Below, one piece after another: positions 1 to 36,901 of a stretch of DNA of 36,901 nt. This stretch comes from Acidimicrobiales bacterium (lineage in GTDB: Bacteria > Actinomycetota > Acidimicrobiia > Acidimicrobiales > JABEUL01). The stretch lies in NCBI GenBank assembly GCA_027371755.1, contig DAHXLF010000008.1, forward strand, positions 1 to 36,901, written 5' to 3'. The notes under the pieces were generated by a model. It was given only the letters and a program-made list of their open reading frames with translations. It was not told the origin of the DNA and did no database searches. The translations under genes and the position numbers were made by a program. The number at the start of each line of letters is the position of its first letter. The first letter of the stretch is position 1.

Positions 1-3000
1 ATCCATAAGGTTGATTAGCTAGAGCTATGGATGGATCAGGATTTATGAATAGACCTACACCTGGGTCATAGAATCTATTTCCCATGATCCAGAAGTGAGT
101 TCCAGGATCGTTATATGCTCCATCATATCCTATTTGGGGTTGAGTTGATGAGGGTGTGCTATTTCCAAATGATCCATAGTTCTTTACGAAACTGACTTCA
201 TTTGAAGTATTTAATCCTGCATCTACTGTGTTGTTATCAGTGGTAATTAAATACTGCTGACTTAAGGCTGTATTTGGTTTGAATGCTTCAACTGGTGTTC
301 CACCTGGACCATAGACATAGTCCCATGTGGAATCAGACAGAATCTGTGAAGTTAACTGGTTGTAGGTAAATGTTGCTAAATTAGATGATCCTGAACTAAT
401 TTGCATTAACTGACCACTACCTGAATAGGAGTAGTTCCAGCCGGTGAAAAATACCGAAAACCCTGTCATTTGACCTAAAGAATTGTAGTAATAGTAAGCA
501 GGTACCTGCTGTCCATTCCATGGGAACATGTAACTAGTTCTATTACCCTGGGAGTCATATGTGAAAGTATTTACAGGTGATGGAGATGCTGAGCCACAAG
601 ACGTAGGAGGTGATAAAAGAGAGTACTGAGAAAGTATTTCTCCTCCAGTTGAAAAACACTGAGAGTAACTGTCATTGGGTGAAACAAGAGGATTTCCTTG
701 ATTGTCATAAGTGTAGGTAGGAGGAGTTGTTGCACCTAATGCAGTAGTGGAAGAATAGGTTAGTTGACCAAGTGAGTTGTAGCCTGTGTTAATTCCAGCC
801 CAGTTGGTAGTAAGCATAGAGGCGGCATTTCTTATTTCAGACTTGGTAGTCGGTCCAGATGGATAGTTAATTGCAAATCCAGTTAATGAGTAATTGGCAT
901 CTACAGTGTTAGTGAGTGTATCTAAGGTATTTGTAGAAGAGTTATCACAAAGGGGTAGTTGCCTAGAAATGAGAGAACCATTTGGGTCATAGGTAAATGA
1001 CAAAGTATCATTTGGTATCTGAGTAGTTCCACAGGAACTAACCCCTGGAGTCATTGGAGTAGTTAGGGAGGTCATCCTGTTGGCTATATCATATTGATAA
1101 TTAACAATTGGATTAGTAGATGATGGAGTACCACTGCAACCTGAAGACATCGTTGCCATCTGATAGCCAACACAAGTAATATTAGAATTATTGTCATAGG
1201 CGTAAGTGGTTATATGTCCTAAATCATCAGTAGCTGCAACTAATCTGCCAAGTGCATCATAGGCATATGTACTTTGTCCCAACTGGTCTGTAGTTGATGC
1301 TATTTTACCCTGCCCATCATAGGTATTAGTTGTGGTATTGAACTGATCTGAAAAGCTTTGACCGCCATTAGAAGTTGGTAATATGTCTCCAGCATTTGCA
1401 CTAGTTGATCCAGCAATTAAACAATTAGTTGTAGATCCACAAGATATCCCACCAACTAAGCTAGTTCCAGGTGGAAGAGTCCCCAAAGAGGTGGAAAATG
1501 ATCCTGAGTTATTAGCAATGACTACTGCAGAAGGGTTAGATCCTGATTTGCCAGTTGCTATACAAGATGTTGCAGATGGATAGCCTGGACAGTCAATTGC
1601 AGAAAGTGACGTCAGAGAACTTGGGGCAGTAGTTGAATCATCAAATGAGGTAGATGGATTGGTGGAGGTTAATATAGAAGCATTAGTCCCACTTTGACCA
1701 ACTGCAACACACTCAGTAGTTGATCCACATGATATTTGATTAAGTGAGGTAGGAAGTGATCCACTACCCGAAATAGATGAAGATGAAAATGTTGAGCCGT
1801 TCCAGGTGTCAATTACTCCAGTTGATGAAGAAGTACCAACTAATGCACAATAAGTTGTTGAAAGACAATATATTGAACTTGGTTCCCAAGTAGGAGGAGT
1901 TCCAGATGCATTAGAAAAACTTAACCCTCCATTTGTAGTTTCAATAACAACTGGAGTAGTTCCAATCTCGCCAGTTGCAATACAAGTTGTAGTAGATGGA
2001 CATGATATAGAAGTAAGTGAAGTTGCTAACGTTGAACTAAGAGTTGTCATAGACCAACTACTTCCAGAGTTACTAGTGTATATAACAACTGCTGAGCCAC
2101 TTGATTCTCCAACCACTTCACAGTTGCTAGAAGACGAACAAGAGATCTGAGATAATGAGGTGATAGAAGAAGGCAGTGTCTCATTTGTCCAGTTGCCAGG
2201 GGATCCACCTATAATAACTGGTAAACCAGTATTTGTACTCCCTACAGTAAAACAATCAGTTGCGTATCCACAAGAAATTGTATTTAGTGATTCTGTATAA
2301 GTGGTGGTACCTGGTGTTGAAGGTACTCCTATAGTTGATCCAGTAAGTGAATTTGCACTATTGTAGCTATATATATTGGAAACACCCGATGAGAGGCTCG
2401 CATCTAGAAGATTCCCTGCAAGATCATATGCGTAATCGGTAGTATTGCCACTGTTAGTAGATCCTGTCAATGTCCCGAATGGCTCACTTTGAGAGATAAC
2501 TTCACCTTTAGAGTTGTAGGTCCAGCTAGTTGTCTCACCACCTGGAATAGTAGAACAAGTTGGATTTGAAACAGCACTTACACTTTCATAACACAAGTTC
2601 CCATCCAAGTTATATGCATAAGTAATTGTTAATGGATTATTAGGTGGTGATGAACAGTTTCGAGACGAAATAGTAGATGTAGTACTAAAGCACAGTTCAT
2701 TTGCAGCGTTATAGGCATAGCTCTTTACAACTGTTGGAGTAGTGGTATTACCTGGGGCATCTGTAGATGTACCAGTGGTTGAAGTTGTTGATAGGGTGTT
2801 TCCATCTGCATCATAAGTATAAGAAGTGGTAGCTGAAACTCCATTAATTGGAGGACCTACAATCTCAGTTGGCTGATCAAAAGCAGTGTAGGGATTGGTA
2901 GTAGATGCATACGTTGTTGTGTAATTTGCACTACATCCACATTGGGGCACATTGCCATCTGGAGTAGTAAAGGTAAGTATTCGACCTATTGAGTCATACG

Positions 3001-18297: not shown

Positions 18298-18604
18298 GCT
18301 TACCACCGATTACGGTTGGCTCAGCTCCATTTGGTATCGCAATTTCTCAACAAAGCAATACTGCTTATGTGTGTGACACGGGTTCCAATGAAATTACACC
18401 TATAGACTTAAGCACATTAAGCCCTGAAGCTCCTATAACAAATATAAAAACTCCGATTGGAATAGCATTGTCATCTAATGCCAAGTACGCATTAGTCACA
18501 GATACTGGATCAAATCAAGTAACTCCAATTGACTTAAAGAAAATGCAGGTCTTATCGCCTATTACTGTAGGATCCCACCCAATAGGCATAGCAATAAGCA
18601 ATAA
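18298..18604. other. Unique 307-base spacer between the palindrome arms
   Basis: This is the only single-copy part of the window. It is coding throughout on the plus strand, carrying the propeller units that precede those in the right arm. Upstream of 18298 the propeller frame enters the inverted copy of its own 3' end and meets a stop at 18288-18290. The spacer's left edge is therefore a breakpoint inside a gene. A 307-nt loop is far larger than a hairpin-telomere loop. Confidence 0.95.
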
Positions 18605-20535: not shown

Positions 20536-20804
20536 AAGTAAATTTTAGTGAATTTAAAACTACCGATTTCATACAAAAGCCTTGTGGGGCAACGACGGCA
20601 ATAGATTTAGGTGGAATTAAATTCGGATTGCGGTATGTAAGGATATTTAAGAAAACATAAAAATAAAATACTGAATCTATGATCACAGATTTTAAAAAAC
20701 TGCAAAAACAACAAGATCGCAACAAAGACAGATCAACCGCAGATTTGTACAGTCAAAGGATCAAAATGTTTCAACGGGGGGATTTTAGCTCTAATATAAA
20801 GGTT

Positions 20805-21776
20805 ATGCAGAAAAGAAAACTTGGAAATATGGAAGTATCGGCAATCGGATTAGGTTGTATGGGTATGTCAGAATTTTATGGCGTCACAGACGATGAAGAA
20901 TCAATTAAGACGATAAGGACAGCTCTTGATTTAGGTTGTAATTTTTTGGACACGGCAGATATGTATGGACCTTTTAAAAATGAGCTTCTAGTCAATAAGG
21001 CAATTGCAGGCAGAAGAGACGAAGTTATCCTGGCGACAAAATTTGGAAATCAACGAGACGAAAACGGTAACTTTTTGGGCGTTAACGGTAAACCTGACTA
21101 TGTAAAGGCCTCTTGTGAAAATTCACTTAAAAGACTTGGTGTCGATTATATAGATCTTTACTATCAACATAGGGTCGATACGACTGTTCCAATTGAAGAA
21201 ACCGTCGGCGCGATGGCCGAATTGATTAAAGAAGGCAAGGTGAAATATCTGGGATTGTCCGAAGCGTCGGCGGCGACTATAGTACGTGCCAATAAGGTGC
21301 ATCAGATTACGGCGTTACAGTCTGAGTATTCGTTGTTCACGAGAGATTTAGAAGCAGAAATCATTCCTATAATTAAAGAGTTGAATATAGGTTTGGTGCC
21401 TTATTCTCCGCTGGGAAGAGGCATGCTTACGGGAGCATACAAAAATATTTCTGACTTTGGACCCAACGACACGCGTTCGACAAGATTTCCCCGGTTTGCC
21501 CAGGAAAATTTCGAAACCAATGTCCAATTGGCATCAAACGTAGCTCAGATTGCCGCAAAATATAATGCCTCCCCGGGACAAGTTGCATTGGCCTGGGTTC
21601 TGGCGCAAGGTGATAATTTTGTACCCATTCCCGGAACCAAGAGAGTTAAGTACTTACAAGAAAATCTTGGCGCAGCGGAAATTGAGCTGACGCAAAGCGA
21701 TAAAGATTGGCTGTCAGATAACATTAAGAAGCCTGTTGGCGATCGATATTTCGATATGGGTACGGTTAACCGTTAA
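20805..21776 (+). CDS. Aldo/keto reductase, right-arm copy
   Basis: Identical to complement 15126-16097: NADPH-dependent oxidoreductase with tetrad Asp, Tyr (DTADMYG), Lys (ATKFG) and His (YYQHRVD). The ATG at 20805 matches where homologues begin. In-frame ATGs at 20766 (with AAAGGA upstream) and 20679 would add 13 or 42 residues. Substrate unknown; 126 bases separate it from the BrkB-like gene. Confidence 0.93.
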
Positions 21777-21902
21777 GAATCGCACTGGTTATAAAACCTT
21801 AATATTTATTTGATGGATATTTCGTCCTTTAGGTCGGGTCCACCCTTCGGCGTTAAACTGGAATTTAATTGGCTTGTTGTTGGACAGTCGTTAATGTAGT
21901 AA

Positions 21903-22796
21903 ATGAAGAATAAAAATAAGACTCAATCTTCGTACAAAAAGTTACGCGATTCTAAAATTTATTGTGTCGTCGATGAACTTGCACAACGATCTTCAAAAGA
22001 CAGAGTTACGGTAAGTGCGGCTGCACTATCTTTTCACGGAGTTTTGGCCTTCTTCCCGGCAGTCGTATCTTTGATCGGCATTTTGCATCTTATGGGGTTG
22101 AACTCAAAAAATACCGAAACGGTGGTGCATTATATTACGTTGATATTGCCCGCTCAGGCGGCAACGGTGGTTACGGGTGCAATAAAAACTAGAGAGGCAA
22201 CGGGAGCAAGTACATTGGAGGTGATTTTGGGTACAATTGTAGCTCTCTGGAGTCTGACTGGGGCGATAGCGTCTATGCAAGTCGGACTTGATTTGGCATA
22301 CGAAATACCTAAAGATAGAAGCTTTATAAAAAGAAGATTGAGCTCTGTTCCCTTGGTCGGGGTGTCTTTGTTGTTTATCCTAGCGATATTTATTGATTTA
22401 ATTGGTGGAACTTTTCTCATTAGGCATATTACTTCGATTGATTCAGGGGTTACTTTCGGGTTTTTGGGAGGTATTTTGGATATCGCAAGGCTGATTGTTG
22501 CAATAATGCTAGCGTTAATACTTCTTTCGGTTTATTACAGTTTCGGTTCGGCAAAAAAAACCCCAATAAAGGACTTTTTCAACATTAAGACGCTATTTTC
22601 TTATGGATCATTGGTAGCTGTCGTGGCATGGGTGATATCCTTATTCGGTTTTTCTCTGTATTTAACACACTTTTCCAATACAACAAAAACCTATGGTTTG
22701 TTCGGTAGCATAATTGTTATGATGCTCTGGCTTTATATAACGTCTTACTTTCTATTCTTGGGTGCTGAAATGAATGCAAGAATGTCGGATCAATAG
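21903..22796 (+). CDS. YihY/BrkB family inner-membrane protein, right-arm copy
   Basis: Identical to complement 14106-14999: 297 residues, about six membrane helices, family signatures ALSFHGVLAFFPAV, WSLTGAIASMQVGLDLAYE and LFLGAEMNA. Role unknown. Same strand as the reductase upstream; no terminator is seen after it. Confidence 0.9.
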   Translation: MKNKNKTQSSYKKLRDSKIYCVVDELAQRSSKDRVTVSAAALSFHGVLAFFPAVVSLIGILHLMGLNSKNTETVVHYITLILPAQAATVVTGAIKTREATGASTLEVILGTIVALWSLTGAIASMQVGLDLAYEIPKDRSFIKRRLSSVPLVGVSLLFILAIFIDLIGGTFLIRHITSIDSGVTFGFLGGILDIARLIVAIMLALILLSVYYSFGSAKKTPIKDFFNIKTLFSYGSLVAVVAWVISLFGFSLYLTHFSNTTKTYGLFGSIIVMMLWLYITSYFLFLGAEMNARMSDQ

Positions 22797-23154
22797 GAAT
22801 ACAGGGGTTTGAAGCAGTATCATTAATTTATTGAATTAGTCGTTGAAGCGAGGAAACTATTGGAAATTAACAAGGTGTTAGGATTTGAACTTATATTCCC
22901 GAATGATACCACCTTTTAAAACTTGACAGTTTGTAGCATCCAGTGCTCTTGCGATACGCTCAGCTGAAGGCGCCTTTTGACCCATACTGTGGTGAATAGT
23001 CCGAATAATTAAGAGCGGGATTATGCTGAATTCATGGTTCTATTCATATAGCGTATATAAAGAAGATGTATTTAAACTAATCAATGGAATAGGTAGTGGA
23101 CCGGTGCGATATTTCCGTAGACTCCCTCTAAATAAGTCAGTCTGTGTCTAAAAA
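22797..23154. other. Non-coding gap with a tRNA-like fragment, right-arm copy
   Basis: Mirror of 13748-14105. The tRNA-like words are on the minus strand at 22871-22976. No gene is supported. Confidence 0.4.
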
Positions 23155-23406
23155 ATGTCTAAAATTAGTCGTGATCACTCAATGTTAGGCGGTGTTACTC
23201 ATCTTAGAAATGACGTATATATGCGGGTTTCGGCGCTAGTCGTGGTAAATGATAGTACGGTAAACTTGCACGGCATGAATAGCTATGTGGGTCATTCACT
23301 AATTAACCAAGCATTGTTGAAGGCAAATTCGTTTGAGCTATACGTCATCAGGTCGGTATTGGTTCCATTGGGTTGGATAGTTATTTCAGTGGAAATGTCG
23401 ATATAA
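23155..23406 (+). CDS. Doubtful 83-codon ORF, right-arm copy
   Basis: Identical to complement 13496-13747. ATG start, no ribosome-binding site, no recognisable domain, weakly hydrophobic C-terminus. Possibly chance. Confidence 0.15.
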   Translation: MSKISRDHSMLGGVTHLRNDVYMRVSALVVVNDSTVNLHGMNSYVGHSLINQALLKANSFELYVIRSVLVPLGWIVISVEMSI

Positions 23407-23520
23407 GATATGGCTAATTTTCAACAAAGTCTTGCAATTTTAAGCTTAAATTAGATATCCGTCTTTAAGATTAAATTGCGATAAATCCAATCTTCTATCT
23501 GCTGGCACGTTAAGCTTCAT

Positions 23521-23554
23521 CGATAATGCCTTGTTTTGAATGATTGAATTATCG
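23521..23554. promoter_or_regulatory. Hairpin abutting the 360-residue gene, right-arm copy
   Basis: CGATAAT at 23521-23527 pairs with ATTATCG at 23548-23554, five bases before the TTG start at 23560. Possible translational hairpin or operator. Confidence 0.3.
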
Positions 23555-23559
23555 TTAAA

Positions 23560-24642
23560 TTGACTTGCCGATTGTTCTCGGCTATTTTTAATTATGTGCA
23601 AAAAATAAGATCAAAACCAGAAGACAGCCCGAAGACAGCGACCCAGGAAAATATTTTGTCTAAACGGTTTCAGGGGTCAACCGAAAGGCTGGAAGTCTGG
23701 TACGACACATTTACGGACGATACCAATAACGCAGGCTTTTGGATACATCATGAGTTAATTAGTCCGACAGATGGTGATCCTTACGTACACGGATGGATAG
23801 GTTACTTTTTTAACTCACCTATTAATGATCTAAAAACCGCAGCGGATCAAAGATTCGACGGTAAAAATAAAAAATTGAATAACGCCGTGGGTTTTGAGCG
23901 CTTTGGTCCGCTGCCAATGTCGAGATCTCCGTTTTTTGAATGTGGTGACGTTATGGTTGCACCCAATGTAAGAAAAGGGAAGACTGAAAATATAACTTGG
24001 GAACTGACAACCAGCGAATTTCACGACCCACCGGTATTTACTTTCGGTAGACTTGCTTGGGAAAAGGAAATATTGCCGAGCTGCCAAATCGTGGGGGGAC
24101 CGAATTTGAATTACAACGGTTTAATAAAGATTGGTTCGCAAAGCTTTAAAATTTCAAATGCTAAGGGGGCTTTGTCGCGAATTTACGGGCACGGCAATGC
24201 TAAAAGGTGGGGCTGGCTGCATGTAGATTTGGGTGATTCTGATATGCTCGAAGTAGTTTCTGCCGTTTCTACCAAACCGGGACTGGAAAAGCTCAAACCC
24301 TTGGGGTTCCTGCAGCTTAGATATAAAAACCAAGATTGGCCTTCAAACCCGTTAGTTTCCTTTCCTTTTTTTAAGACTAAGTTGCCTGGGCGTCAATCTG
24401 ATAACCATTGGTCGATTTCAGGTAAATCTGGGCAGTATAGGATTAACGTTAGGATTAGCATGCCTGAAAACAGGTGTGTGTCAGTAGACTATACGGATCC
24501 CGACGGACATAAAGCTGTATGCGTCAATACTGAAATCGGTGACGCGGACATATATTTGGAGCAAAAGATTTCGAACCGATGGATTCTCATTCGGCACTGG
24601 GATGTTAAAAATAGTGCACATTGTGAAATGGGCTTCAGATAG
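23560..24642 (+). CDS. Conserved protein of unassigned function, right-arm copy
   Basis: Identical to complement 12260-13342: 360 codons from TTG, soluble, Trp-rich and beta-rich, with the HHELISPTDG and GNAKRWGWLHVDLG segments. Resemblance to AttH/CrtC-type lipocalin proteins is tentative. It lies upstream of menB-menA on the same strand, with 391 bases between. Confidence 0.75.
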   Translation: MTCRLFSAIFNYVQKIRSKPEDSPKTATQENILSKRFQGSTERLEVWYDTFTDDTNNAGFWIHHELISPTDGDPYVHGWIGYFFNSPINDLKTAADQRFDGKNKKLNNAVGFERFGPLPMSRSPFFECGDVMVAPNVRKGKTENITWELTTSEFHDPPVFTFGRLAWEKEILPSCQIVGGPNLNYNGLIKIGSQSFKISNAKGALSRIYGHGNAKRWGWLHVDLGDSDMLEVVSAVSTKPGLEKLKPLGFLQLRYKNQDWPSNPLVSFPFFKTKLPGRQSDNHWSISGKSGQYRINVRISMPENRCVSVDYTDPDGHKAVCVNTEIGDADIYLEQKISNRWILIRHWDVKNSAHCEMGFR

Positions 24643-25033
24643 CCATTCGTTCTGAATTTTGAAACGAACGCTCAGTTAATAGATGTTACCAAAAGTTTAA
24701 AGTTAGGTGTTTTAACTTCAAGTCAATAATTTAATTTAATGTGGATGTTTGAGGTAACACTGGGAATTAGGCGGATACAAAGGCGATGTCTTGCTTAATT
24801 TGTCACAAATGTACCGCATCCATAAACCGCATAGACTTGAAGTCGAAGAGTTTACACTTGGGCGGTGAGTGACTACGTTCTTGTGTCTGGGTAATTGTAG
24901 TACCGAATTAAAATATAGTATTAACTTAATTGCCCGCATTGCCTAATAAGCATTTGTAGAGTATTGAATAGTTTTGTCAATAATCTTGGACTAAGAAACA
25001 AGATTAGTTTGTTGTAATGAAAGCGGATTAACA
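24643..25033. other. Intergenic region upstream of menB, right-arm copy
   Basis: Mirror of 11869-12259. It holds a TTCGTT/AACGAA hairpin just after the upstream stop, an AAGTTA/TAACTT hairpin at 24700-24718 and the inverted repeat at 24981-25006. No gene. Confidence 0.55.
24981..25006. promoter_or_regulatory. Inverted repeat upstream of menB, right-arm copy
   Basis: TAATCTTG at 24981-24988 and CAAGATTA at 24999-25006. The repeat ends 28 bases before the menB ATG at 25034. Confidence 0.35.
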
Positions 25034-25882
25034 ATGGGAAATGAACAACAGTCAATAGTTTGGAAAAACGCTGCTGATTTTCAAGATATTAGATATGAGA
25101 CTTATAATGGGATCGCCAAGATTACTATTAACAGACCTGAAGTCAGAAATGCATTTAGGCCTGAGACATTAGCGGAGTTAAAAACCGCCTTTGATCTCGC
25201 ACGGGATGATTTGGAGGTCGGCGTCATAATATTTACGGGAGAAGGCAAACTTGCGTTCTGTAGTGGCGGAGATCAAAGGATTAGAGGCAAGGACGGTTAT
25301 GTCGGATCTGATTCAGTCGGACAAAACGGAGTTGGCAGATTAAATGTCCTGGACCTGCAGATTCAAATCAGGCGACTTCCTAAACCCGTTATTGCAATGG
25401 TGGCCGGATATGCAATCGGAGGCGGACATGTACTTCATTTAGTTTGCGATTTGACAGTTGCGGGCGATAATGCTCGGTTTGGACAGACCGGTCCTCGAGT
25501 CGGAAGTTTTGATGGAGGGTACGGTGCATCTCTTTTGGCCAGGACAGTCGGCCTAAAAAGAGCCAAGGAGATTTGGTTTTTGTGCAGACAGTATGATGCT
25601 CAAACTGCACTCGATTGGGGCCTTGTAAATCAGGTCGTTCCGGTGGATGATCTTGAAAATGAAACGGTAAAATGGGCAGAGGAGATCCTGGCTCTTTCTC
25701 CAATCGCCTTGAGAATGCTTAAAGCTGGATTTAATGCAGCTGATGACGGGCTGGCGGGGATACAACAGTTGGCCGGAGATGCGACAATGTTGTTCTACAT
25801 GAGCGAAGAGGGGCAGGAGGGTAGAAATGCTTATGTTGACAAACGCAAGCCGGACTTTTCAAAGTACCCTAAGAGACCGTGA
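25034..25882 (+). CDS. menB: 1,4-dihydroxy-2-naphthoyl-CoA synthase, right-arm copy
   Basis: Identical to complement 11020-11868: 282-residue crotonase-fold ring-closing enzyme with [29 protein letters not shown] (Ser158, Asp160) and [20 protein letters not shown]. Gly153 predicts bicarbonate dependence. First gene of the menB-menA pair; its TGA lies within the overlap GTGA. Confidence 0.97.
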
Positions 25883-26781
25883 GTCAAGATCAACAAAACT
25901 TAAATAAGCTTAAACTGTTTTATTTGGGTGCCCGACCGAGAACCTTGCCTGCGGCTGTATCTCCTGTTATAGTTGGTTCGGCCATTGCGGTGAACCGTCG
26001 ACTCGGTGATTTGTCGATAGCTAAATTTATTTTGTGTCTGGCGGTGGCACTGTTCCTGCAGATCGGAGTTAACTACGCCAATGACTATTCGGATGGCATT
26101 AAAGGTACCGACGATAAAAGAGTGGGGCCGTTACGATTGGTGGGTTCAAATTTAGTAGAGCCCAGATATGTAAAGTATGCGGCTTTTATTTGCGGACTGC
26201 TGGCTGCCGTTGCCGGATTAATCTTGGCGCTGGTAACTTCCTTTTGGTTTATCCCCGTAGGTTTGGTAAGCATATTGGCTGCCTGGGGCTATACCGGCGG
26301 TCCTAAACCTTACGGATATATGGCTCTGGGAGAGCTGAGTGTGCTTATTTTTTTTGGGTTTGTGGCTACAGTCGGTTCTTTCTATGCTCAAAGTCTGCAC
26401 ATCAACTCCGTATCGGTTGTAGGTGGGCTATCGGTCGGTCTTTTGGCGTGTTCGATTTTGGTTGCAAATAACCTAAGAGATATTGAAGGAGACAGGCAAA
26501 ATAGAAAGAGAACTCTCGCCGTTTTGTTGGGCGATACTTATACTCGTTTTCTTTTAGTATTTACAACGGTAATGGGGATTATTCTGTCGATTGCAATTGG
26601 GTACATGTTGCATGATATGTGGACATCAATTGCAGTAGCGACATTGGCGGTGGCAGTAAATCCATTAATTAGAACGATTAGGAAAGCAAAAGGCAAAGAT
26701 CTGATACCCGTACTAAAACAGGTTGCAATGATTGAAATAGTTTATAGTATTTTACTGACCATAGGTCTGTTTGTTAGATGA
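25879..26781 (+). CDS. menA: 1,4-dihydroxy-2-naphthoate polyprenyltransferase, right-arm copy
   Basis: Identical to complement 10121-11023: 300-residue UbiA-type membrane enzyme with NYANDYSDG and NLRDIEGDR Asp-rich motifs. Its GTG start overlaps the menB stop by 4 bases, implying coupled translation. It converges with menH, 60 bases apart. Confidence 0.95.
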
Positions 26782-26841
26782 CGGTTTGCATAAAATTGTT
26801 TAGGAGTCAATAATATCTATAGGTCGTGTAATCGGTTACAA

Positions 26842-27600
26842 TCAATTTAATAAAAAGTTGGCATATAATTCAGCTACGGTGTCAGATCTTTCCAGATGAG
26901 GACTGTGAAAAGCATCTTCCACTAATTCAAGCATCGAAGTGTCACCTGTAGTTTTTGCAATTTCATAAGCGATGTTCCGATACTTTAAGTCATTGCTACC
27001 CGCAACTATCAAGACCTTAAGGCTAACCTTAGAAAATATATTCATTTGTTCCCAGATGGGAACAAAGTTTCCCTGTCCAAAATTGATCAATGAACCCGCC
27101 AGCCCTTTAGGGTTTGATAGGTAGCGGGCGTTAAGGTCATCTTGATTAGGTATGTGGTTCCCAAATAAAGGTTGCCGAACCCACTCGTCGATAAAAGTTT
27201 TGAATTCGACTCCGTTCATTTCGGATAATTTATCAGCTAAAGCAAAATCCTGTCGTGCTCGTTCAGCTTTTTCCAATGTGTCTGTTATCCCGGGATTGCA
27301 CGAGATTAAAGTCAATGTTTTGACGTAGGGAAGCAAGTCAATCGCGCATTTGGCAGCCAGCCTTGCTCCTAGCGAATATCCCAGAAAGTGTGCGGGTAGA
27401 TGAGTCTCAATAATATTGTTTAACTCATTAAAATTTGATTCAACTTCCCCGGCATTCCCATGACCGGGAAGGTCAAATGTGATTAAATTAAAGTCATCTT
27501 TAGAATTTTGATTAATTTTCGGTATAAGACTTTCGACAAACGGTTTAAAAGATGCTTTTGTCTGCGTAAATCCGTGAAAAAATATTATATTTTCAGACAT
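26842..27600 (-). CDS. menH: MenH-like alpha/beta hydrolase, right-arm copy
   Basis: Identical to 9302-10060: 252 residues with triad Ser76 (GYSLG), Asp204 (GSND) and His232 (AFHSPHLE). MenH assignment is supported by the convergent menB-menA pair; it would form SHCHC in menaquinone synthesis. Confidence 0.85.
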   Translation of the reverse strand: MSENIIFFHGFTQTKASFKPFVESLIPKINQNSKDDFNLITFDLPGHGNAGEVESNFNELNNIIETHLPAHFLGYSLGARLAAKCAIDLLPYVKTLTLISCNPGITDTLEKAERARQDFALADKLSEMNGVEFKTFIDEWVRQPLFGNHIPNQDDLNARYLSNPKGLAGSLINFGQGNFVPIWEQMNIFSKVSLKVLIVAGSNDLKYRNIAYEIAKTTGDTSMLELVEDAFHSPHLERSDTVAELYANFLLN

Positions 27601-28191: not shown

Positions 28192-30132
28192 ATGAATGGC
28201 CCTAAGAAAGTAACCGATATCGGACAGACGTTTCGTCTTAGAAAAATGCCGGCCCTTGATGGGTTAAGAGGTTTGGCCATTGTGGGCGTCCTTTTGTACC
28301 ACGGGGGATATTTAACTGGAGGATGGCTCGGTGTCGACCTGTTCTTCGTATTATCCGGGTATCTTATTACTTCGTTGATTATAAAAGAATGGATTAAAGG
28401 CGAGAAGCATTTGTCTCTGGTAGCTTTTTGGGGTAGGCGAGCGCGACGATTGTTGCCGGCATTAATCATTCTGTTTTTAGGCGTAATGGTTTATGCATTG
28501 CTTCTTGCATCTCCGTTGGATCTTCAAACTATTCGTTTTAACGGTATTGCAACAATGTTTTATTCGGCTAACTGGTACCTCATAGGAAGCCATTCTGACT
28601 ATTTTCAAAATACTTTATTGCCGTCTCCGTTACAGCACACTTGGTCTTTGGCAATTGAGGAGCAGTTTTATCTTGTTTGGCCGTTACTGTTAATGTTGGC
28701 TTTAAAGTTTCGCCATGCCCTTAAAACAGCTTTTGGGGTTGCAATTGGCTTAGCGATGGCATCCGTTGCCACAATGATAATTTTACATGCTAACGGAGCA
28801 TCGATCAGCAGGCTGTACTATGGAACGGATACACGGGCAAGCAGTCTTTTGTTCGGAAGTGCCTTGGGAATTTGGCATGTACTTATAAAAAAGCAGCATA
28901 GCGAGGGTAAAAGTTGGATAGCCCTTCAGGTCGTGGGAGCGCTCTCTTTATGCGGACTTGCGACTGCGTGGGTTACTTTAAGTGGTCAATCCGGGTTCGC
29001 GTACGAGGGCGGACTGGCATTGTGTGGGCTCGGTGCAACCGCAGTGGTGGCACTTGCTGCTAATCCACGGTTAGGAGTATTGGGTAAAGCTATGTGTTGG
29101 CCACCGCTGAGGGCTCTTGGTATTATAAGCTACGGAGTTTACTTGTATCACTGGCCGATATTTCTTGTTCTTAATATGGAGCTGAACTACAAAAATCACA
29201 TCATTCATGGTTTGGTTCTGTTTGTTGCAGAGGTGGCTATTACCTTAATTTTAGCTGTGGCTTCTTATATTTTGGTGGAACAGCCCATTAGGCAACGTCG
29301 GATGTTTAAGGGGCTTAGAGGGCTTGCTTCAGTTTCGACTGCTGCAGTTGCAATACTGGCGATGTTGCTTGTAGTAACCGTTGGGGCCCAGTCAGCAGAC
29401 GTTGTGGCATTACCCTCTTCGGTTGATCAAACTTTTAATGGCCCCGCCAATTCTCCGGTAGTTATGGTAGTAGGCGATTCAACAGCATTTAGCCTCGGTG
29501 CGGCAATGGCTAAATTCAGTAATCGACTTAATGTTAGTGTGGCAAATTGGGCCATTATTGATTGCGGACCGATTTATGATCTTGGAAATGTAATGAACTA
29601 TTCTGGACAACTTTTGAGCAGTCATCCAGACTGTACTTCGGATTGGCAGCGTGGCATCAAAAAGACTCATTCCAACGTGGTGATTATGATGTTTGGGTTT
29701 CCGCCAATAAATTCTGTGTTTTTTGCTGGCGGATGGCAACATGCATGCGATCCGACTTACGACGCCGCACTTGAAAAGAGAATTGCTTCTGGGGTTAATA
29801 TGTTTTTAAAGGGAGGAAGCCGAGTGGCAATAATTTCAACTCCTTATCAATCTTCAAACGGATTGGTGGGATTTGATCCCAGCTACACTGATAGTTATAT
29901 CTCCTGTCAAAATACGGTGCTAAAGAGCGTAGGTGAAAATTCCGGATCTCGTGTTGCATATTTAGATGTTAATAAATTTCTTTGTCCCGTAGATGAGGTG
30001 TGTTTCAACAACATAGACGGGGTTACGATGCGCGCAGACGGTCTACACTTTCATTCCTATGACGGACTACTTGTTTCGGAATGGATTCTTAAAAATATCA
30101 AAAGCCAATTGTACTCGGTTAAACATCTCTGA
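28192..30132 (+). CDS. Membrane O-acyltransferase fused to SGNH hydrolase domain, right-arm copy
   Basis: Identical to complement 6770-8710: 646 residues, acyltransferase-3 membrane domain (LDGLRGLAIVGVLLYHGG, FFVLSGYLIT), then an extracytoplasmic SGNH domain with GDS at 428-430 and DGLH at 616-619. Likely O-acylation of a cell-surface glycan; substrate unknown. Confidence 0.94.
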   Translation: MNGPKKVTDIGQTFRLRKMPALDGLRGLAIVGVLLYHGGYLTGGWLGVDLFFVLSGYLITSLIIKEWIKGEKHLSLVAFWGRRARRLLPALIILFLGVMVYALLLASPLDLQTIRFNGIATMFYSANWYLIGSHSDYFQNTLLPSPLQHTWSLAIEEQFYLVWPLLLMLALKFRHALKTAFGVAIGLAMASVATMIILHANGASISRLYYGTDTRASSLLFGSALGIWHVLIKKQHSEGKSWIALQVVGALSLCGLATAWVTLSGQSGFAYEGGLALCGLGATAVVALAANPRLGVLGKAMCWPPLRALGIISYGVYLYHWPIFLVLNMELNYKNHIIHGLVLFVAEVAITLILAVASYILVEQPIRQRRMFKGLRGLASVSTAAVAILAMLLVVTVGAQSADVVALPSSVDQTFNGPANSPVVMVVGDSTAFSLGAAMAKFSNRLNVSVANWAIIDCGPIYDLGNVMNYSGQLLSSHPDCTSDWQRGIKKTHSNVVIMMFGFPPINSVFFAGGWQHACDPTYDAALEKRIASGVNMFLKGGSRVAIISTPYQSSNGLVGFDPSYTDSYISCQNTVLKSVGENSGSRVAYLDVNKFLCPVDEVCFNNIDGVTMRADGLHFHSYDGLLVSEWILKNIKSQLYSVKHL

Positions 30133-30804: not shown

Positions 30805-31071
30805 TTATTATTCTCCATTTCTTTTCATAGTGGTCTCCAATAAAGTTCTACCACCCTAAACATCTAAGTCATTTACTTTTCAATAACACATTTCACAGGC
30901 TGAAATTAGTTAGATAAATTATATTCAATCTTCAATCCCGGTTTCAAGTTCCAAAGGAGACATGGATGGGTTCTTATAAATTCCTTCGACATAGTGTAAT
31001 AAGTCAAGCTAATATGACGATATGGCCGATAAAGAAATTCTCTCAAGTTGAAAAATATTTATCATATATAT

Positions 31072-34000
31072 ATGAAGAGGAAGCGATTTAGCTTTCTAGG
31101 CTGGCAAAAAGTCCTTGAAGTATTTCTTGTTCCACTTTTAATTTTGTCTTTGATGATAATAGTAGTGAAAAGCCCAGCTCAAGTTAAGGTTGCTTCTCCG
31201 AAAGTAGAAAATGTATCGTCATCAGCTAGCCCACTTTCTATATGGGTTGCAAATGCTGCTAGCCTCTTTTCTCCTATATCTCTAAACTCATATAATCCAA
31301 CTACCGGAAGCTCTACTGGAAATAGCATCAAACTTGGGACATTGTACACAATGCGTTCTATTGGTTTTAGCTCTGATGGTCGTATTGCTGTAGCCACGGG
31401 TGATAACAGTAGTGGTGGAATTGTGATTGATATTGCTAATTTAACTACAAATTCCGATGTTGAACTTAGCGATCCTAATTATACTGATAATACAACCATT
31501 GTTACAAGTGATGTTGTAATTACCCCTAATAATAAGTGGGCATATGTTGGTCTAGATGCACCAAATGAAATTGACTTATACGTTATTAATCTTTCCAAAG
31601 GCACCTTTGCCTACTATACTCCAAGTTTTACCAATAGCCTCGGCATAAGCAGTCTTGCTCTTTGTCCAGATGGCGATACTTTACTTGGTGCTCCAGATGG
31701 CTTTATAGCTACCGGTGCTTCAACTGGAAATCTCTCAGCCTATCAAATCTCTGGTTCACCAACTGCAGTGCAATGTTCATCGAAACCTACAGCAATGTTT
31801 TCTTCTGGTGCACTTTCAACTGTTGGTTTAAATGGTACAACTTCCTCAACTGGAGTAAATATTCCAGGATCTCAGATATTAGAAACTGCTATTAACGAAA
31901 ATAGTACATTAGCTCTTGCAAGTGGACAAGATGTAAATCAAGTAGCTTCAGGTGGCTATTCACTAATTGGATCCGTTCCTTCTAACGTTAATCCTATTGG
32001 AGCTGCATCTGGTGATGGATTTGCATTACTTGGAAATAACAATACTGTTTATTATAATGGTAGTTCATTTAGTGCAGGAACAGGTGTACTATCGGTGGGA
32101 TTTGGTTTGACGCCTCCTCCTCAAGGTTTAACAGTTAAACAAATGCTAGGAGATGCCTTTAATGCTGCTCTTTTATGTGGCGGATGTTTTACTCAAGCAA
32201 TCCAAGGAGTTTCTAAACTGGTTAGTTCAGCTTTTTCATCTCAATCAGCAGAATTAGAAGCTGAAATAGGAGATGCAGAGATGACTGATGCATTACCAGT
32301 CAACACGGCTAATGGTAACTTCTCCTACCAGCTTCCATCAATTTCATTAGTTGGAAGAGGTCCATCTGTTAGTTTTAGTCCAAACTATAACTCTTCTGAA
32401 GCTAACGTTTATGGACCTGTTGGACTTGGGCCTGGTTTTTCTGACGGGGCTCTTATGATGCTTTCTATAAATAATCCAAGTAGTGGCGATATAACAATAA
32501 GCCAAGAAAATGGATCCCAAGTTACCTTTTATCCTCAACAAAGCGGTGGAGGATGTACGGCTCCACAAATGGCAATCGATCCAAATTCATCTCTGGATCC
32601 ATCAGGAGTATATTTCTGTGCTTATCCCGATGTGTTATCGACTCTTTATAGCCAAACTCTTTCTTCACCAAATTCAGGTACAACTGCTACATTTATTAGA
32701 TTCTCACCATATGAAGTTTCGACTTTCTGTATGTCTTCTACATGTAGCGACCAAGGTAATTCTTACAGTCAAGGTCAACTTATTTCACTAGCTGATAAGT
32801 TTTCAAATACTGATGTAATAAATCAAGATTCAACGAGCGGAACTGGTTGTTCTGCAACGGGATACCATTGTGTTGCAATTACAGATCCAAGCGGAAGAGC
32901 CTTAACTTATCTTGTGTGTGTTACAGCTTCTTGTACAAGCCAAAATCCATCAGGGGAAGTGGTTTCTGTATCAGATTCAATTCACACCGAAAGCTTTACA
33001 TATGCAACGGCCACTTCAACTTGTGCAACGTCAACACCCGCTAGTTGTGTTGCTGGTGATCTTATTGGAGTATCGTTTTATTCTACTAATGATACGACTA
33101 GCAGAACTTGGAGCTTTAATTACGATGAGACTTCTTTATTAAATGCAATTGATTCTGTGGTTGATCCCAATGGAAATACTCAACTAACCAATACATATGA
33201 TGATACGAGTACAACTGACACCTATTTTGGATGGGTAACTTCACAAACGAATGCATTAAATGAAAAAACATCCTTTAACTATCATATAGATCCCTCTACA
33301 CTGACTGGAGCTACTGTTGCAACAGATCCTTTAGGCAATAAAACCGATTACATGTACTCAGGGGGATTGTTGCAGTCAGTCATATCAGGTTACGGAACCT
33401 CAAGTCCGTCACAAACGTCATACTTTAGAGGTTTAAATTCTTTGCCTGAACAGACTATAGATCCAAATGGAAATGTCTACAACTTTTCTTATGACACTTT
33501 AGGACGCTTAACTTCTTTTCAGGATCCAGTTAAAATAGCCACCACTTTCATTTACTCTAACTTAACTACTTTAACCCCTTCTTATTTTGATCCCATAGAA
33601 ATTGATCTAGCAAACCCTGGAAGTGATTCTTCTGGTTATTCATCTATTCTTGTCTCCTATGATCCAACCTTTGGTGATCTGACCAAAGTTGAACAAAATG
33701 GAAATTATGGAGGTGGATCTACAAATCCAACTCCAACTTCCACTTATAGTTGGTGTGCATCTTCAACTTGTACCGGAGGTTATTTATTAGGTGAACTTGA
33801 GAGTACAACAAATCCGGGTGGTGGAGTAACTACATATTCATATGACTCAAGTGGAGATTTGATTTCAGCTACTAATCCTGACGGTGATATAACAAGTGCA
33901 ACGTATGACTCAATAGGTCGAATACTTACCTTTACTACTCCAGATGGCAATGTGCCCCAATGTGGATGTAGTGCAAATTACACAACAACGTATGCATCTA

Positions 34001-36901
34001 CTACCAATCCCTACACTGCTTTTGATCAGCCAACTGAGATTGTAGGTCCTCCAATTAATGGAGTTTCAGCTACCACTTCTTATACTTATGATGCAGATGG
34101 AAACACCCTATCAACAACTTCAACCACTGGTACATCTACAGATGCCCCAGGTAATACCACTACTCCAACAGTTGTAAAGAGCTATGCCTATAACGCTGCA
34201 AATGAACTGTGCTTTAGTACTACATCTACTATTTCGTCTCGAAACTGTTCATCACCACCTAATAATCCATTAACAATTACTTATGCATATAACTTGGATG
34301 GGAACTTGTGTTATGAAAGTGTAAGTGCTGTTTCAAATCCAACTTGTTCTACTATTCCAGGTGGTGAGACAACTAGCTGGACCTACAACTCTAAAGGTGA
34401 AGTTATCTCTCAAAGTGAGCCATTCGGGACATTGACAGGATCTACTAACAGTGGCAATACTACCGATTACGCATATGATCTTGCAGGGAATCTTCTAGAT
34501 GCGAGCCTCTCATCGGGTGTTTCCAATATATATAGCTACAATAGTGCAAATTCACTTACTGGATCAACTATAGGAGTACCTTCAACACCAGGTACCACCA
34601 CTTATACAGAATCACTAAATACAATTTCTTGTGGATACGCAACTGATTGTTTTACTGTAGGGAGTACAAATACTGGTTTACCAGTTATTATAGGTGGATC
34701 CCCTGGCAACTGGACAAATGAGACACTGCCTTCTTCTATCACCTCATTATCTCAGATCTCTTGTTCGTCTTCTAGCAACTGTGAAGTGGTTGGAGAATCA
34801 AGTGGCTCAGCAGTTGTTATATACACTAGTAACTCTGGAAGTAGTTGGTCTATGACAACTCTTAGTTCAACGTTAGCAACTTCACTTACTTCTATATCAT
34901 GTCCATCTACTACAACTTGTATTGCAACTGGCGAGATTGGAACTACTCCAGTTGTTATTGAAACTACAAATGGAGGGTTAAGTTTTTCTAATGCATCTGG
35001 AACTCCTCCTACTTGGGAACCAAGTTCAATATATTGTCTTTCAACAACTTATTGTGCATTAGTTGGTACTTCTTCATCAACTGGAGTAATTGACACCTGG
35101 AACGGCTCAACATTTTCATCTTCATCTATTTCGGGTAGTGGATCACTTCCTACCTCACTTAATCAAATATCATGTGGATCAACTACTGAGTGTGTTGCAG
35201 TTGGTCAAAGTGGGACTAATGCTTCTATATTAACCTCCACCAATCCATCTACCTCATTTGATGATTCAACTACTGCCCCAAGTTCTCTGACGTCACTTTC
35301 TGCAATTGACTGTCCAGGCTATCCATCTGCAACATCTTGTATAGCAACTGGCAAATCAGGATCTAACCCTTCTGCAGTAGTCATTGCTAATAACTCAGGA
35401 TCATTTTCCACCTCTTTGGGGACTCTTCCACCTGGAACTAGCTTAGTTGGTGGGATATCTTGTGGATCTACAACTAATTGTTTAATTGCTGGATCAACTA
35501 GTGCAAATGCTGGAGACATATTACCAACTTCTAATGGCGGTCAAAGCTTTTCAGATCAGTTCAATACCACAACTAATACCTATGATGGGCAGGGTAAAAT
35601 AGCATCAACTACAGACCAGTTGGGACAAAGTACATATGCCTATGATGCACTTGGCAGATTAGTTGCAGCTACTGATGATTTAGGACATATAACCACTTAC
35701 GCCTATGACAATAATTCTAATATTACTTGTGTTGGCTATCAGATGGCAACGATGTCTTCAGGTTGCAGTGGTACTCCATCATCTACTAATCCAATTGTTA
35801 ATTATCAATATGATATAGCCAACAGGATGACCTCCCTAACTACTCCAATGACTCCAGGGGTTAGTTCCTGTGGAACTACTCAGATACCAAATGATACTTT
35901 GTCATTTACCTATGACCCAAATGGTTCTCTCATTTCTAGGCAACTACCCCTTTGTGATAACTCTTCTACAAATACCTTAGATACACTCACTAACACTGTA
36001 GATGCCAATTACTCATTAACTGGATTTGCAATTAACTATCCATCTGGACCGACTACCAAGTCTGAAATAAGAAATGCCGCCTCTATGCTTACTACCAACT
36101 GGGCTGGAATTAACACAGGCTACAACTCACTTGGTCAACTAACCTATTCTTCCACTACTGCATTAGGTGCAACAACTCCTCCTACCTACACTTATGACAA
36201 TCAAGGAAATCCTCTTGTTTCACCCAATGACAGTTACTCTCAGTGTTTTTCAACTGGAGGAGAAATACTTTCTCAGTACTCTCTTTTATCACCTCCTACG
36301 TCTTGTGGCTCAGCATCTCCATCACCTGTAAATACTTTCACATATGACTCCCAGGGTAATAGAACTAGTTACATGTTCCCATGGAATGGACAGCAGGTAC
36401 CTGCTTACTATTACTACAATTCTTTAGGTCAAATGACAGGGTTTTCGGTATTTTTCACCGGCTGGAACTACTCCTATTCAGGTAGTGGTCAGTTAATGCA
36501 AATTAGTTCAGGATCATCTAATTTAGCAACATTTACCTACAACCAGTTAACTTCACAGATTCTGTCTGATTCCACATGGGACTATGTCTATGGTCCAGGT
36601 GGAACACCAGTTGAAGCATTCAAACCAAATACAGCCTTAAGTCAGCAGTATTTAATTACCACTGATAACAACACAGTAGATGCAGGATTAAATACTTCAA
36701 ATGAAGTCAGTTTCGTAAAGAACTATGGATCATTTGGAAATAGCACACCCTCATCAACTCAACCCCAAATAGGATATGATGGAGCATATAACGATCCTGG
36801 AACTCACTTCTGGATCATGGGAAATAGATTCTATGACCCAGGTGTAGGTCTATTCATAAATCCTGATCCATCCATAGCTCTAGCTAATCAACCTTATGGA
36901 T
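31072..36901 (+). CDS. RHS/YD-repeat protein, right-arm copy, 3'-truncated by window edge
   Basis: Identical to complement 1-5830: at least 1943 residues with an N-terminal anchor at 15-33, RHS shell opening near 405-470 and YD repeats. Seven Cys-pair BNR-like units lie at about 34621-35500, and more YD repeats follow. It stops at the window edge within the RHS core (YDPGVGLFINPDPS). The variable, possibly toxic tip is not in the window. ATG at 31072 directly follows an ATATATAT run. Confidence 0.92.
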   Translation, partial: MKRKRFSFLGWQKVLEVFLVPLLILSLMIIVVKSPAQVKVASPKVENVSSSASPLSIWVANAASLFSPISLNSYNPTTGSSTGNSIKLGTLYTMRSIGFSSDGRIAVATGDNSSGGIVIDIANLTTNSDVELSDPNYTDNTTIVTSDVVITPNNKWAYVGLDAPNEIDLYVINLSKGTFAYYTPSFTNSLGISSLALCPDGDTLLGAPDGFIATGASTGNLSAYQISGSPTAVQCSSKPTAMFSSGALSTVGLNGTTSSTGVNIPGSQILETAINENSTLALASGQDVNQVASGGYSLIGSVPSNVNPIGAASGDGFALLGNNNTVYYNGSSFSAGTGVLSVGFGLTPPPQGLTVKQMLGDAFNAALLCGGCFTQAIQGVSKLVSSAFSSQSAELEAEIGDAEMTDALPVNTANGNFSYQLPSISLVGRGPSVSFSPNYNSSEANVYGPVGLGPGFSDGALMMLSINNPSSGDITISQENGSQVTFYPQQSGGGCTAPQMAIDPNSSLDPSGVYFCAYPDVLSTLYSQTLSSPNSGTTATFIRFSPYEVSTFCMSSTCSDQGNSYSQGQLISLADKFSNTDVINQDSTSGTGCSATGYHCVAITDPSGRALTYLVCVTASCTSQNPSGEVVSVSDSIHTESFTYATATSTCATSTPASCVAGDLIGVSFYSTNDTTSRTWSFNYDETSLLNAIDSVVDPNGNTQLTNTYDDTSTTDTYFGWVTSQTNALNEKTSFNYHIDPSTLTGATVATDPLGNKTDYMYSGGLLQSVISGYGTSSPSQTSYFRGLNSLPEQTIDPNGNVYNFSYDTLGRLTSFQDPVKIATTFIYSNLTTLTPSYFDPIEIDLANPGSDSSGYSSILVSYDPTFGDLTKVEQNGNYGGGSTNPTPTSTYSWCASSTCTGGYLLGELESTTNPGGGVTTYSYDSSGDLISATNPDGDITSATYDSIGRILTFTTPDGNVPQCGCSANYTTTYASTTNPYTAFDQPTEIVGPPINGVSATTSYTYDADGNTLSTTSTTGTSTDAPGNTTTPTVVKSYAYNAANELCFSTTSTISSRNCSSPPNNPLTITYAYNLDGNLCYESVSAVSNPTCSTIPGGETTSWTYNSKGEVISQSEPFGTLTGSTNSGNTTDYAYDLAGNLLDASLSSGVSNIYSYNSANSLTGSTIGVPSTPGTTTYTESLNTISCGYATDCFTVGSTNTGLPVIIGGSPGNWTNETLPSSITSLSQISCSSSSNCEVVGESSGSAVVIYTSNSGSSWSMTTLSSTLATSLTSISCPSTTTCIATGEIGTTPVVIETTNGGLSFSNASGTPPTWEPSSIYCLSTTYCALVGTSSSTGVIDTWNGSTFSSSSISGSGSLPTSLNQISCGSTTECVAVGQSGTNASILTSTNPSTSFDDSTTAPSSLTSLSAIDCPGYPSATSCIATGKSGSNPSAVVIANNSGSFSTSLGTLPPGTSLVGGISCGSTTNCLIAGSTSANAGDILPTSNGGQSFSDQFNTTTNTYDGQGKIASTTDQLGQSTYAYDALGRLVAATDDLGHITTYAYDNNSNITCVGYQMATMSSGCSGTPSSTNPIVNYQYDIANRMTSLTTPMTPGVSSCGTTQIPNDTLSFTYDPNGSLISRQLPLCDNSSTNTLDTLTNTVDANYSLTGFAINYPSGPTTKSEIRNAASMLTTNWAGINTGYNSLGQLTYSSTTALGATTPPTYTYDNQGNPLVSPNDSYSQCFSTGGEILSQYSLLSPPTSCGSASPSPVNTFTYDSQGNRTSYMFPWNGQQVPAYYYYNSLGQMTGFSVFFTGWNYSYSGSGQLMQISSGSSNLATFTYNQLTSQILSDSTWDYVYGPGGTPVEAFKPNTALSQQYLITTDNNTVDAGLNTSNEVSFVKNYGSFGNSTPSSTQPQIGYDGAYNDPGTHFWIMGNRFYDPGVGLFINPDPSIALANQPYG

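What the first reader, a model, noticed from the sequence alone, without database searches (positions are those of the whole stretch)
34600..35530. Block of seven Cys-pair BNR-like repeats inserted within the RHS YD-repeat shell
Seven units of about 45 residues, each with I-S-C-x5/x8-C-x-x-x-G, interrupt the YD repeats at about residues 1185-1480, and the YD repeats resume after it. Such repeats usually form their own propeller-like proteins. In an RHS cocoon this would put a disulfide-bearing propeller into the shell wall or a loop. I do not know this combination as a described architecture.
Basis: partly seen in the sequence, partly recalled or inferred. Interest (0 to 1): 0.55.

Follow-up and report, generated by a model that had tools for sequence, protein, structure and literature searches.

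The report
Disulfide propeller inserted in RHS shell
A giant shell-forming protein of an uncultured actinobacterium carries, in the middle of its shell repeats, an extra propeller-shaped domain whose seven blades are each probably pinned by a disulfide bond; related bacteria carry similar or different propellers in their shells, so this looks like an exchangeable module on a known kind of protein.

Summary
Seven Cys-pair units (34618-35562, residues 1191-1505) interrupt the YD repeats of a 1951-aa RHS protein. A blade profile built only from other proteins of the same genome finds all seven (whole-protein score 45.4 bits; best of 200 shuffles -10.7; five of seven units beat every shuffled domain). 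AlphaFold2 folds the block, in one of five models, as a propeller closest to seven-bladed YCF48; each Cys pair spans the turn between a blade's first two strands. The end of blade 7 is low-confidence.

The combination is not unique. Two congeners have the same block with all 14 Cys, and 11 of 33 YD-bearing ORFs from 15 selected relatives have such blocks inside their shells. Another relative has a propeller of a different blade family just before the equivalent shell strand. One clade for all RHS blocks is rejected (p-AU 2.7e-5).

Propellers inserted in RHS shells are published (Tc toxins, mosquito SGS1), so this is a new variant of a known kind: a disulfide-stapled, BNR/YCF48-like propeller on Acidimicrobiales RHS shells. 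Its role as an outward binding module is inferred. The C-terminal tip lies beyond the contig end, and the contig is a near-perfect palindrome, probably an assembly artefact.

The parts
31048..36900 (+). RHS/YD-repeat protein ORF, 1951 aa, runs off the contig end
   Evidence: PF05593 E 1.7e-34, DUF6531, Rhs_assc_core
31075..31182 (+). N-terminal basic plus hydrophobic stretch, signal/anchor (by eye)
   Evidence: sequence; no signal predictor was run
31402..31806 (+). N-terminal WD40-like stretch (residues 119-253), possible first propeller
   Evidence: phmmer to CFAP52 (8g2z) E 2.8e-5
32296..32529 (+). DUF6531, start of the RHS shell
   Evidence: residues 417-494, 27.2 bits (cut-off 24.1)
33490..34572 (+). 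YD repeats before the block (residues 815-1175)
   Evidence: the A2 profile columns here match solved Rhs structures
34618..35562 (+). inserted block of seven Cys-pair blades (residues 1191-1505)
34618..34749 (+). blade 1 (C1195-C1201), 17.3 bits
34750..34884 (+). blade 2 (C1239-C1245), 28.4 bits
34888..35007 (+). blade 3 (C1285-C1291), 28.9 bits
35023..35148 (+). blade 4 (C1330-C1336), 4.2 bits, not above shuffles alone
35161..35298 (+). blade 5 (C1376-C1382), 19.0 bits
35299..35445 (+). blade 6 (C1422-C1431, x8 spacing), 7.9 bits, not above shuffles alone
35449..35583 (+). blade 7 (C1472-C1478), 14.5 bits; envelope overlaps the first returning YD strand
   Evidence: second half below pLDDT 50
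35578..36717 (+). YD repeats after the block (residues 1511-1890)
   Evidence: only about 1506-1640 is confidently modelled
36724..36873 (+). RHS-associated core, partial (residues 1893-1942)
   Evidence: TIGR03696, 30.4 bits against cut-off 32.5
1340..2284 (-). mirror copy of the block on the other arm of the palindrome

Best explanation
The block is a seven-bladed beta-propeller of the BNR/YCF48 type, set between two consecutive YD strands of the RHS shell about two thirds of the way along it. Each blade carries one Cys pair at the turn between strands A and B, so seven disulfides would ring one face. The protein is most likely exported by Sec with an N-terminal anchor, oxidised outside the membrane, and displayed as an RHS shell. 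The propeller hangs on the outer wall as a ligand-binding or adhesion module that helps the shell dock on a target cell, polymer or partner before the C-terminal payload is released. Shown here: seven units, homology to repeats of stand-alone proteins, a propeller prediction, Cys placement in that prediction, conservation in two congeners, recurrence inside RHS shells of relatives. Inferred: disulfide formation, export route, outside location, binding role, payload.
For: Seven blades; whole score 45.4 bits against at most -10.7 in 200 shuffles. AF2 best model: 10-residue mean pLDDT 59-88 over window residues 1191-1480, pTM 0.68, four strands in six of the seven blades. Foldseek top hit YCF48 5ojp_B, E 6.7e-9, TM 0.71 by target, 302-residue chain. 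VIA Z 28.7 to CylK, 308 residues, 3.0 A; further rows are WD40, virginiamycin B lyase and Gbeta chains, which I recall as propellers. All 14 Cys lie in or next to the ends of the A and B strands (element list). All 14 are conserved in both congeners at 38-40% identity. Of 80 loci with RHS ORFs from a scan of named genomes, 77 have no YD-bearing ORF with three or more blade motifs. In L137 the best matches of the pre-block and post-block pieces meet (72-285 and 281-672). The own genome encodes a VKOR, 91.4 bits. Relatives with intact ends show a DPxG motif after the RHS core and a C-terminal tail.
Against: Only one of five AF2 models folded (63.8; the others 31-37), on a four-row alignment; the second half of blade 7 is below pLDDT 50, so ring closure is not firmly modelled. 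In the 1200-residue model the block is low-confidence, 667 of 1200 residues are below 50 and pTM is 0.46, so the outward placement is not shown. A broad empty-site test failed its control: 53 ORFs have the two shell pieces collinear within 60 residues, but 33 to 70 ORFs do so at offsets of +318, +200, -200, -318 and -400 too, since YD repeats match each other; with best matches only, 9 of 83 ORFs fall within 60 and 3 of 83 in an equally wide bin near +318. Disulfides, display and ligand are untested. The tip is not visible. Published inserted propellers (TcB, SGS1 propeller 2) cap or gate a shell end, a different role.
Confidence: 0.57

Rival explanations
1. The inserted propeller is a gate or cap of the RHS cavity, as in TcB toxins and SGS1 propeller 2, and controls payload release rather than target binding.
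For: Propellers of Tc toxins act as gates (PMC8765631 passages) and SGS1 propeller 2 extends the shell's chamber (PMC9935623 passages). Blade disulfides could be a redox switch.
Against: By residue count the site is about 64% along the shell (DUF6531 at 417, site at 1188, core to 1942), not near the N-terminal opening. No SpvB domain was found at E 0.01. In relatives the positions of the blocks vary, which suits decoration better than a gate.
Confidence: 0.15
2. A neutral or selfish insertion: Cys-blade arrays are very common in this genome and recombine into any extracellular repeat protein; the block has no role of its own.
For: 34 blade matches besides the window's two copies in the own genome; one clade of all 13 RHS blocks is rejected (p-AU 2.7e-5).
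Against: Frame, all 14 Cys and the flanks are kept in three species at 38-40% identity. A propeller of another blade family lies just before the equivalent shell strand in L075, which suggests selection for a propeller there.
Confidence: 0.17
3. The block is not a separate propeller but a diverged stretch of YD shell, or an open array of hairpins.
For: Only one of five AF2 models folded and its last blade is incomplete; blades and YD repeats are both short beta-hairpins.
Against: The blades match stand-alone non-RHS proteins and the fold matches seven-bladed propellers.
Confidence: 0.07

Closest known systems
SGS1 of Aedes mosquitoes (PMC9935623; PDB 8fjp)
   Same: Rhs/YD shell with domains, among them a beta-propeller, inserted into the shell sequence, plus a seven-bladed propeller at the N-terminus (passages)
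   Different: Its inserted propeller is nine-bladed, distorted and at one end of the shell; animal protein. Here seven blades with Cys pairs, about two thirds along the shell by residue count
TcB subunit of Tc toxins (TcdB2, YenB)
   Same: RHS shell with a propeller in the same chain (passages of PMC8765631; PMC3482391)
   Different: SpvB plus integrin-like propeller that gates the cocoon and binds TcA; no SpvB found here at E 0.01
Teneurins and bacterial teneurin-like proteins (PMC13018210)
   Same: YD shell with a propeller (passages)
   Different: Six-bladed NHL propeller with FN-plug before the shell, not inside the YD repeats
YCF48 (PSII_BNR, PF14870; PDB 5ojp, 2xbg)
   Same: Closest solved fold of the block by Foldseek
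   Different: Stand-alone photosystem II assembly factor; Pfam score of the block below cut-off; whether YCF48 has per-blade Cys pairs was not checked
Stand-alone Cys-blade proteins of the same genome (L031, L032, L035, L037 and others)
   Same: Same blade profile: built from them, it reports all seven units
   Different: No RHS; 4 to 14 motif hits per ORF; L032 and L035 also have a TIG domain

Membership tests
RHS/YD-repeat proteins | tandem YD repeats | tested here: met
   PF05593 117.9 bits, cut-off 22; TIGR01643 94.2 bits, cut-off 15.8
RHS/YD-repeat proteins | DUF6531 at the start of the shell | tested here: met
   27.2 bits, cut-off 24.1
RHS/YD-repeat proteins | RHS-associated core | tested here: inconclusive
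   TIGR03696 30.4 bits, just under 32.5; the match stops at model position 51 of 76 near the contig end
RHS/YD-repeat proteins | DPxG autoproteolysis motif and C-terminal tip | not testable with these tools
   contig ends first; motif present in relatives such as L073, L075, L080
seven-bladed beta-propeller, BNR/YCF48 type | propeller fold | tested here: met
   by prediction only, one of five models; Foldseek and VIA matches
seven-bladed beta-propeller, BNR/YCF48 type | complete closed ring of seven four-stranded blades | tested here: inconclusive
   six blades have four strands; blade 7 has three and its second half is below pLDDT 50
seven-bladed beta-propeller, BNR/YCF48 type | Pfam PSII_BNR profile above cut-off | tested here: not met
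   11.5 bits, cut-off 27; PDB Ycf48 by profile A2 E 0.04
seven-bladed beta-propeller, BNR/YCF48 type | Asp-box (S-x-D-x-G-x-x-W; motif recalled) | tested here: inconclusive
   degenerate forms by eye (TSNSGSSW, TTNGGLSF, TSNGGQSF); not scored
Tc toxin TcB | SpvB domain plus integrin-like propeller | tested here: not met
   no SpvB or integrin-like family among hits at E 0.01
Teneurin-like proteins | teneurin YD-shell profile and NHL propeller before the shell | tested here: not met
   no TEN_YD-shell or NHL hit at E 0.01; FN-plug not separately tested
disulfide-stapled propeller | disulfide within each blade | not testable with these tools
   inferred from Cys placement, conservation and VKOR

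The most novel reading that the evidence does not exclude
Acidimicrobiales RHS shells have set wall sites at which whole propellers of different blade families (Cys-stapled BNR/YCF48-like, or YVTN/YncE type) are gained and swapped, one or two per shell. The shell would then be a chassis with exchangeable surface heads, in addition to the known exchangeable C-terminal tips.
Probability: 0.38. Interest if true: 0.62.

Novelty: new variant of a known kind. Interest (0 to 1): 0.42.

Why it matters
RHS proteins are known for swapping their C-terminal toxins. If propellers are likewise swapped at set places of the shell wall, the targeting side of these proteins is modular too, and their ligands become testable one propeller at a time. 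It also gives a bacterial parallel to the inserted propeller and lectin domains of mosquito SGS1. The Cys-blade repeat is widespread in the class (56 of 395 genomes, own included, match profile A2 at E 1e-8; most listed matches cover the block rather than YD), yet no Pfam family reached its cut-off on the window block or on the blade parts of three stand-alone proteins scanned.

Tried and rejected
Chance origin of the motif array: rejected by the whole-protein score against shuffles. My first reading of the shuffles (best domain 4.7 bits) came from the three best whole scores only; over all 200 shuffles it is 10.2. Block as diverged YD: disfavoured by the blade profile and the fold search. Uniqueness: rejected.

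Broad empty-site test: rejected as evidence. 53 ORFs are collinear within 60 residues, but a control at other offsets gives comparable or larger numbers (70 at -318, 66 at -200, 61 at -400, 39 at +200, 33 at +318, 23 at +400, 14 at +600; 83 ORFs from 76 loci have both pieces). Only L137, where the single best matches meet, is kept, as a weak example; short pieces of L137 also match in several other registers. I lowered confidence from 0.60 to 0.57 and the novel reading from 0.40 to 0.38 for this.

Single-protein scan of genome contigs: 31 pattern hits, no relative; the alignment scan kept 80 loci. Scan of viral contigs: 6 loci (L203-L208), not inspected for the block. Plasmids: no match. Solved-structure search with the block alone: best E 0.11. 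Alignments A4 (non-insert rows fell into block columns) and A5 (C-terminal rows misplaced) were not used for folding. The 1200-residue fold did not place the propeller and its superpositions are poor globally (TM about 0.1).

Common origin of the blocks at the window's site: not rejected for seven blocks (p-AU 0.262), rejected when the second block of L076 is added (0.0006). That addition was made after seeing the tree, and L076's place is ambiguous: its post-block match at 1592 (E 6.6e-11) nearly ties with another at 998 (E 8.5e-11). L201 is weak evidence for a shared site: a 47-residue match to L075 after its YVTN repeats is 60% identical, but another place in L201 scores better. Beyond the genus, the window block is not closer to other RHS blocks than to stand-alone arrays.

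Literature: the lists (10 of 17 papers listed) showed no paper on this block in RHS shells; the library lacks most subscription journals. Papers were seen as passages only (PMC8765631, PMC13018210, PMC9935623, PMC2447325, PMC3482391); others only in listings.
Full report
What is there. The gene at 31048-36900 (+) encodes at least 1951 residues of an RHS protein: a basic plus hydrophobic N-terminus (by eye), a WD40-like stretch (CFAP52, E 2.8e-5), DUF6531 at 417-494, YD repeats, and the start of the RHS core at 1893-1942. Between residues 1191 and 1505 the YD repeats stop and seven units spaced 44-50 residues follow, each I-[SYD]-C-x5(8)-C-x3-G. The contig ends before the place where the DPxG motif would be expected, so the tip cannot be seen.

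More than chance. A blade HMM was built from 63 blades of eight other loci of the same genome, leaving the window out. It reports seven domains in the block, 4.2 to 28.9 bits, total 45.4. Over 200 shuffles the best total is -10.7 and the best single domain 10.2 bits; five of the seven blades exceed that, blades 4 (4.2) and 6 (7.9) do not. Besides the window's two copies the genome has 34 matches to the block, in 11 open frames on 10 contigs, one of them interrupted by stops. Ten of these ORFs were read: they have 4-14 motif hits each.

Fold. AlphaFold2 on residues 1141-1560 with a four-row alignment gave one folded model (mean pLDDT 63.8, pTM 0.68; 10-residue means 59-88 over residues 1191-1480) and four poor ones (31-37). 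The second half of blade 7 is below 50. Foldseek's best match is YCF48 (E 6.7e-9; 594 chains at E 0.001 or better). VIA gives Z 28.7 over 308 residues at 3.0 A. Each of the seven Cys pairs spans the turn between strands A and B of its blade (element list). A 1200-residue model with 30 rows is confident only near the block: 10-residue means 61-95 for about 1002-1181 and 55-94 for about 1502-1640, with 667 of 1200 residues below 50. It does not model the block or place it (pTM 0.46). Its Foldseek matches are led by RHS shells, RhsA first (E 1.6e-20, poor superposition). A profile of the three orthologs against PDB sequences matches Rhs proteins in its flanks and, weakly, Ycf48 in its block (E 0.04).

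Is it an insertion? RHS ORFs were found in all 80 loci; 77 of the 80 have no YD-bearing ORF with three or more blade motifs. The exceptions are L097, L098 and L165. L097 is identical to L071, the congener G002; its public title is Acidimicrobiales bacterium clean376, which places the window's genus in that order. L098 is labelled Candidatus Dormiibacterota. L165 has three scattered hits that I did not count as an array. I also tried to show an empty site by matching the shell pieces before and after the block separately. The count of 53 collinear ORFs failed its control, because YD repeats match one another at many offsets. With best matches only, 9 of 83 ORFs have the pieces adjacent and 3 of 83 have them about 318 apart. 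L137, an actinobacterial MAG, is the clearest (72-285 and 281-672). So the insertion is clear from the domain change and its absence in most other shells, but the exact empty site is not proven.

Conservation and recurrence. In congeners G002 (L071) and G001 (L072) the orthologous protein has the block at the same place with all 14 Cys. Among 99 genomes (own plus 98 relatives), 29 match the 660-residue query and 39 have RHS repeats. I took 15 of the 22 relatives that had both kinds of match (the other seven had one to six matches each) and fetched the stretches with RHS_repeat hits. Of 33 YD-bearing ORFs, 11 have Cys blades with YD on both sides (L071, L072, L073, L074, L076, L077, L079, L080, L179, L180, L189; for L180 the YD evidence is by motif only), from 7 of the 15 genomes. 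One ends in blades at a contig end (L178); one is the first ORF of the split L079 gene; 6 have blades only before the YD repeats; 14 have none. This is a selected sample, not a rate for the order. A class-wide scan of 395 genomes, in which at most three candidates per genome were scored, matched 56; one further ORF shows YD, block and YD in order, G343:C130.

Different propellers at one site. The shell piece that follows the block (window 1506-1640) has its clearly best match just behind a propeller in L071, L072, L073, L075, L077, L079 and L189: 7 of the 14 ORFs tabulated, L076 being ambiguous. In L075 (G053) that match starts at 1988 (E 1.5e-18) and what lies before it is a propeller of another blade family (TIGR03866 best stretch 1649-1779, YncE 1675-1782; sequence); the YVTN repeat model also hits L075, best at 945-984. 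L077 has YVTN-type repeats between an earlier pair of YD runs and Cys blades at the window's site. L073 and L076 carry two Cys blocks each. A tree of 35 blocks (13 RHS, 22 stand-alone) rejects one clade for the 13 (p-AU 2.7e-5) but not for the seven Cys blocks first assigned to the window's site (0.262); adding the second block of L076 gives 0.0006. The starred branches force at least two changes between RHS and stand-alone; these may be gains or losses.

How it most likely works. The anatomy suits an exported shell with an outward propeller. The own genome encodes VKOR, which fits extracytoplasmic disulfides. By residue count the insertion lies about 64% along the shell, which favours side decoration over an end cap (inference). 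A ligand-binding or docking role follows from what propellers are proposed to do in SGS1 and elsewhere and is not shown here. That the protein ends in a toxin tip is inferred from relatives with intact ends.

Known or new. An RHS shell with an inserted propeller is a known kind (SGS1, TcB). The Cys-stapled blade family in an RHS shell, its position, and the apparent exchange with YVTN-type propellers were not found in the paper searches listed under Tried and rejected. I rate it a new variant of a known kind, interest 0.42.

Noticed in passing
window 1-36901: The contig is a near-perfect palindrome: 36674 of 36901 positions equal its reverse complement, with a spacer at about 18298-18604; likely an assembly artefact, so nearly every gene appears twice.
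   Followed up: partly
L075 residues ~1630-1985 (G053:C18): Propeller of another blade family (YVTN/YncE type) just before the shell strand that follows the Cys block in the window; L201 may be similar.
   Followed up: partly
L098 1924-5556: RHS protein labelled Candidatus Dormiibacterota with one Cys-blade block before the shell and one that seems to split DUF6531.
   Followed up: partly
L031, L032, L035, L036, L038: Large proteins with Cys blades plus, by eye, three copies of a domain with motif ICDTR...QCN, not identified; TIG found in L032 and L035.
   Followed up: no
L034 and L039 (+ strand ORF): Cys blades followed by a tail that by eye resembles the SGNH domain fused to the acyltransferase of window 28192-30132.
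   Followed up: no
L071, L072 and the window RHS gene: All three orthologs are cut by contig ends in the C-terminal part, so the tip of this family is unseen.
   Followed up: no
L079 (G001:C205): An RHS gene with two Cys blocks is split into two overlapping ORFs in different frames; not mended.
   Followed up: no
window 19360-27600: Menaquinone genes menE, menB, menA and a menH-like gene near the RHS locus.
   Followed up: no
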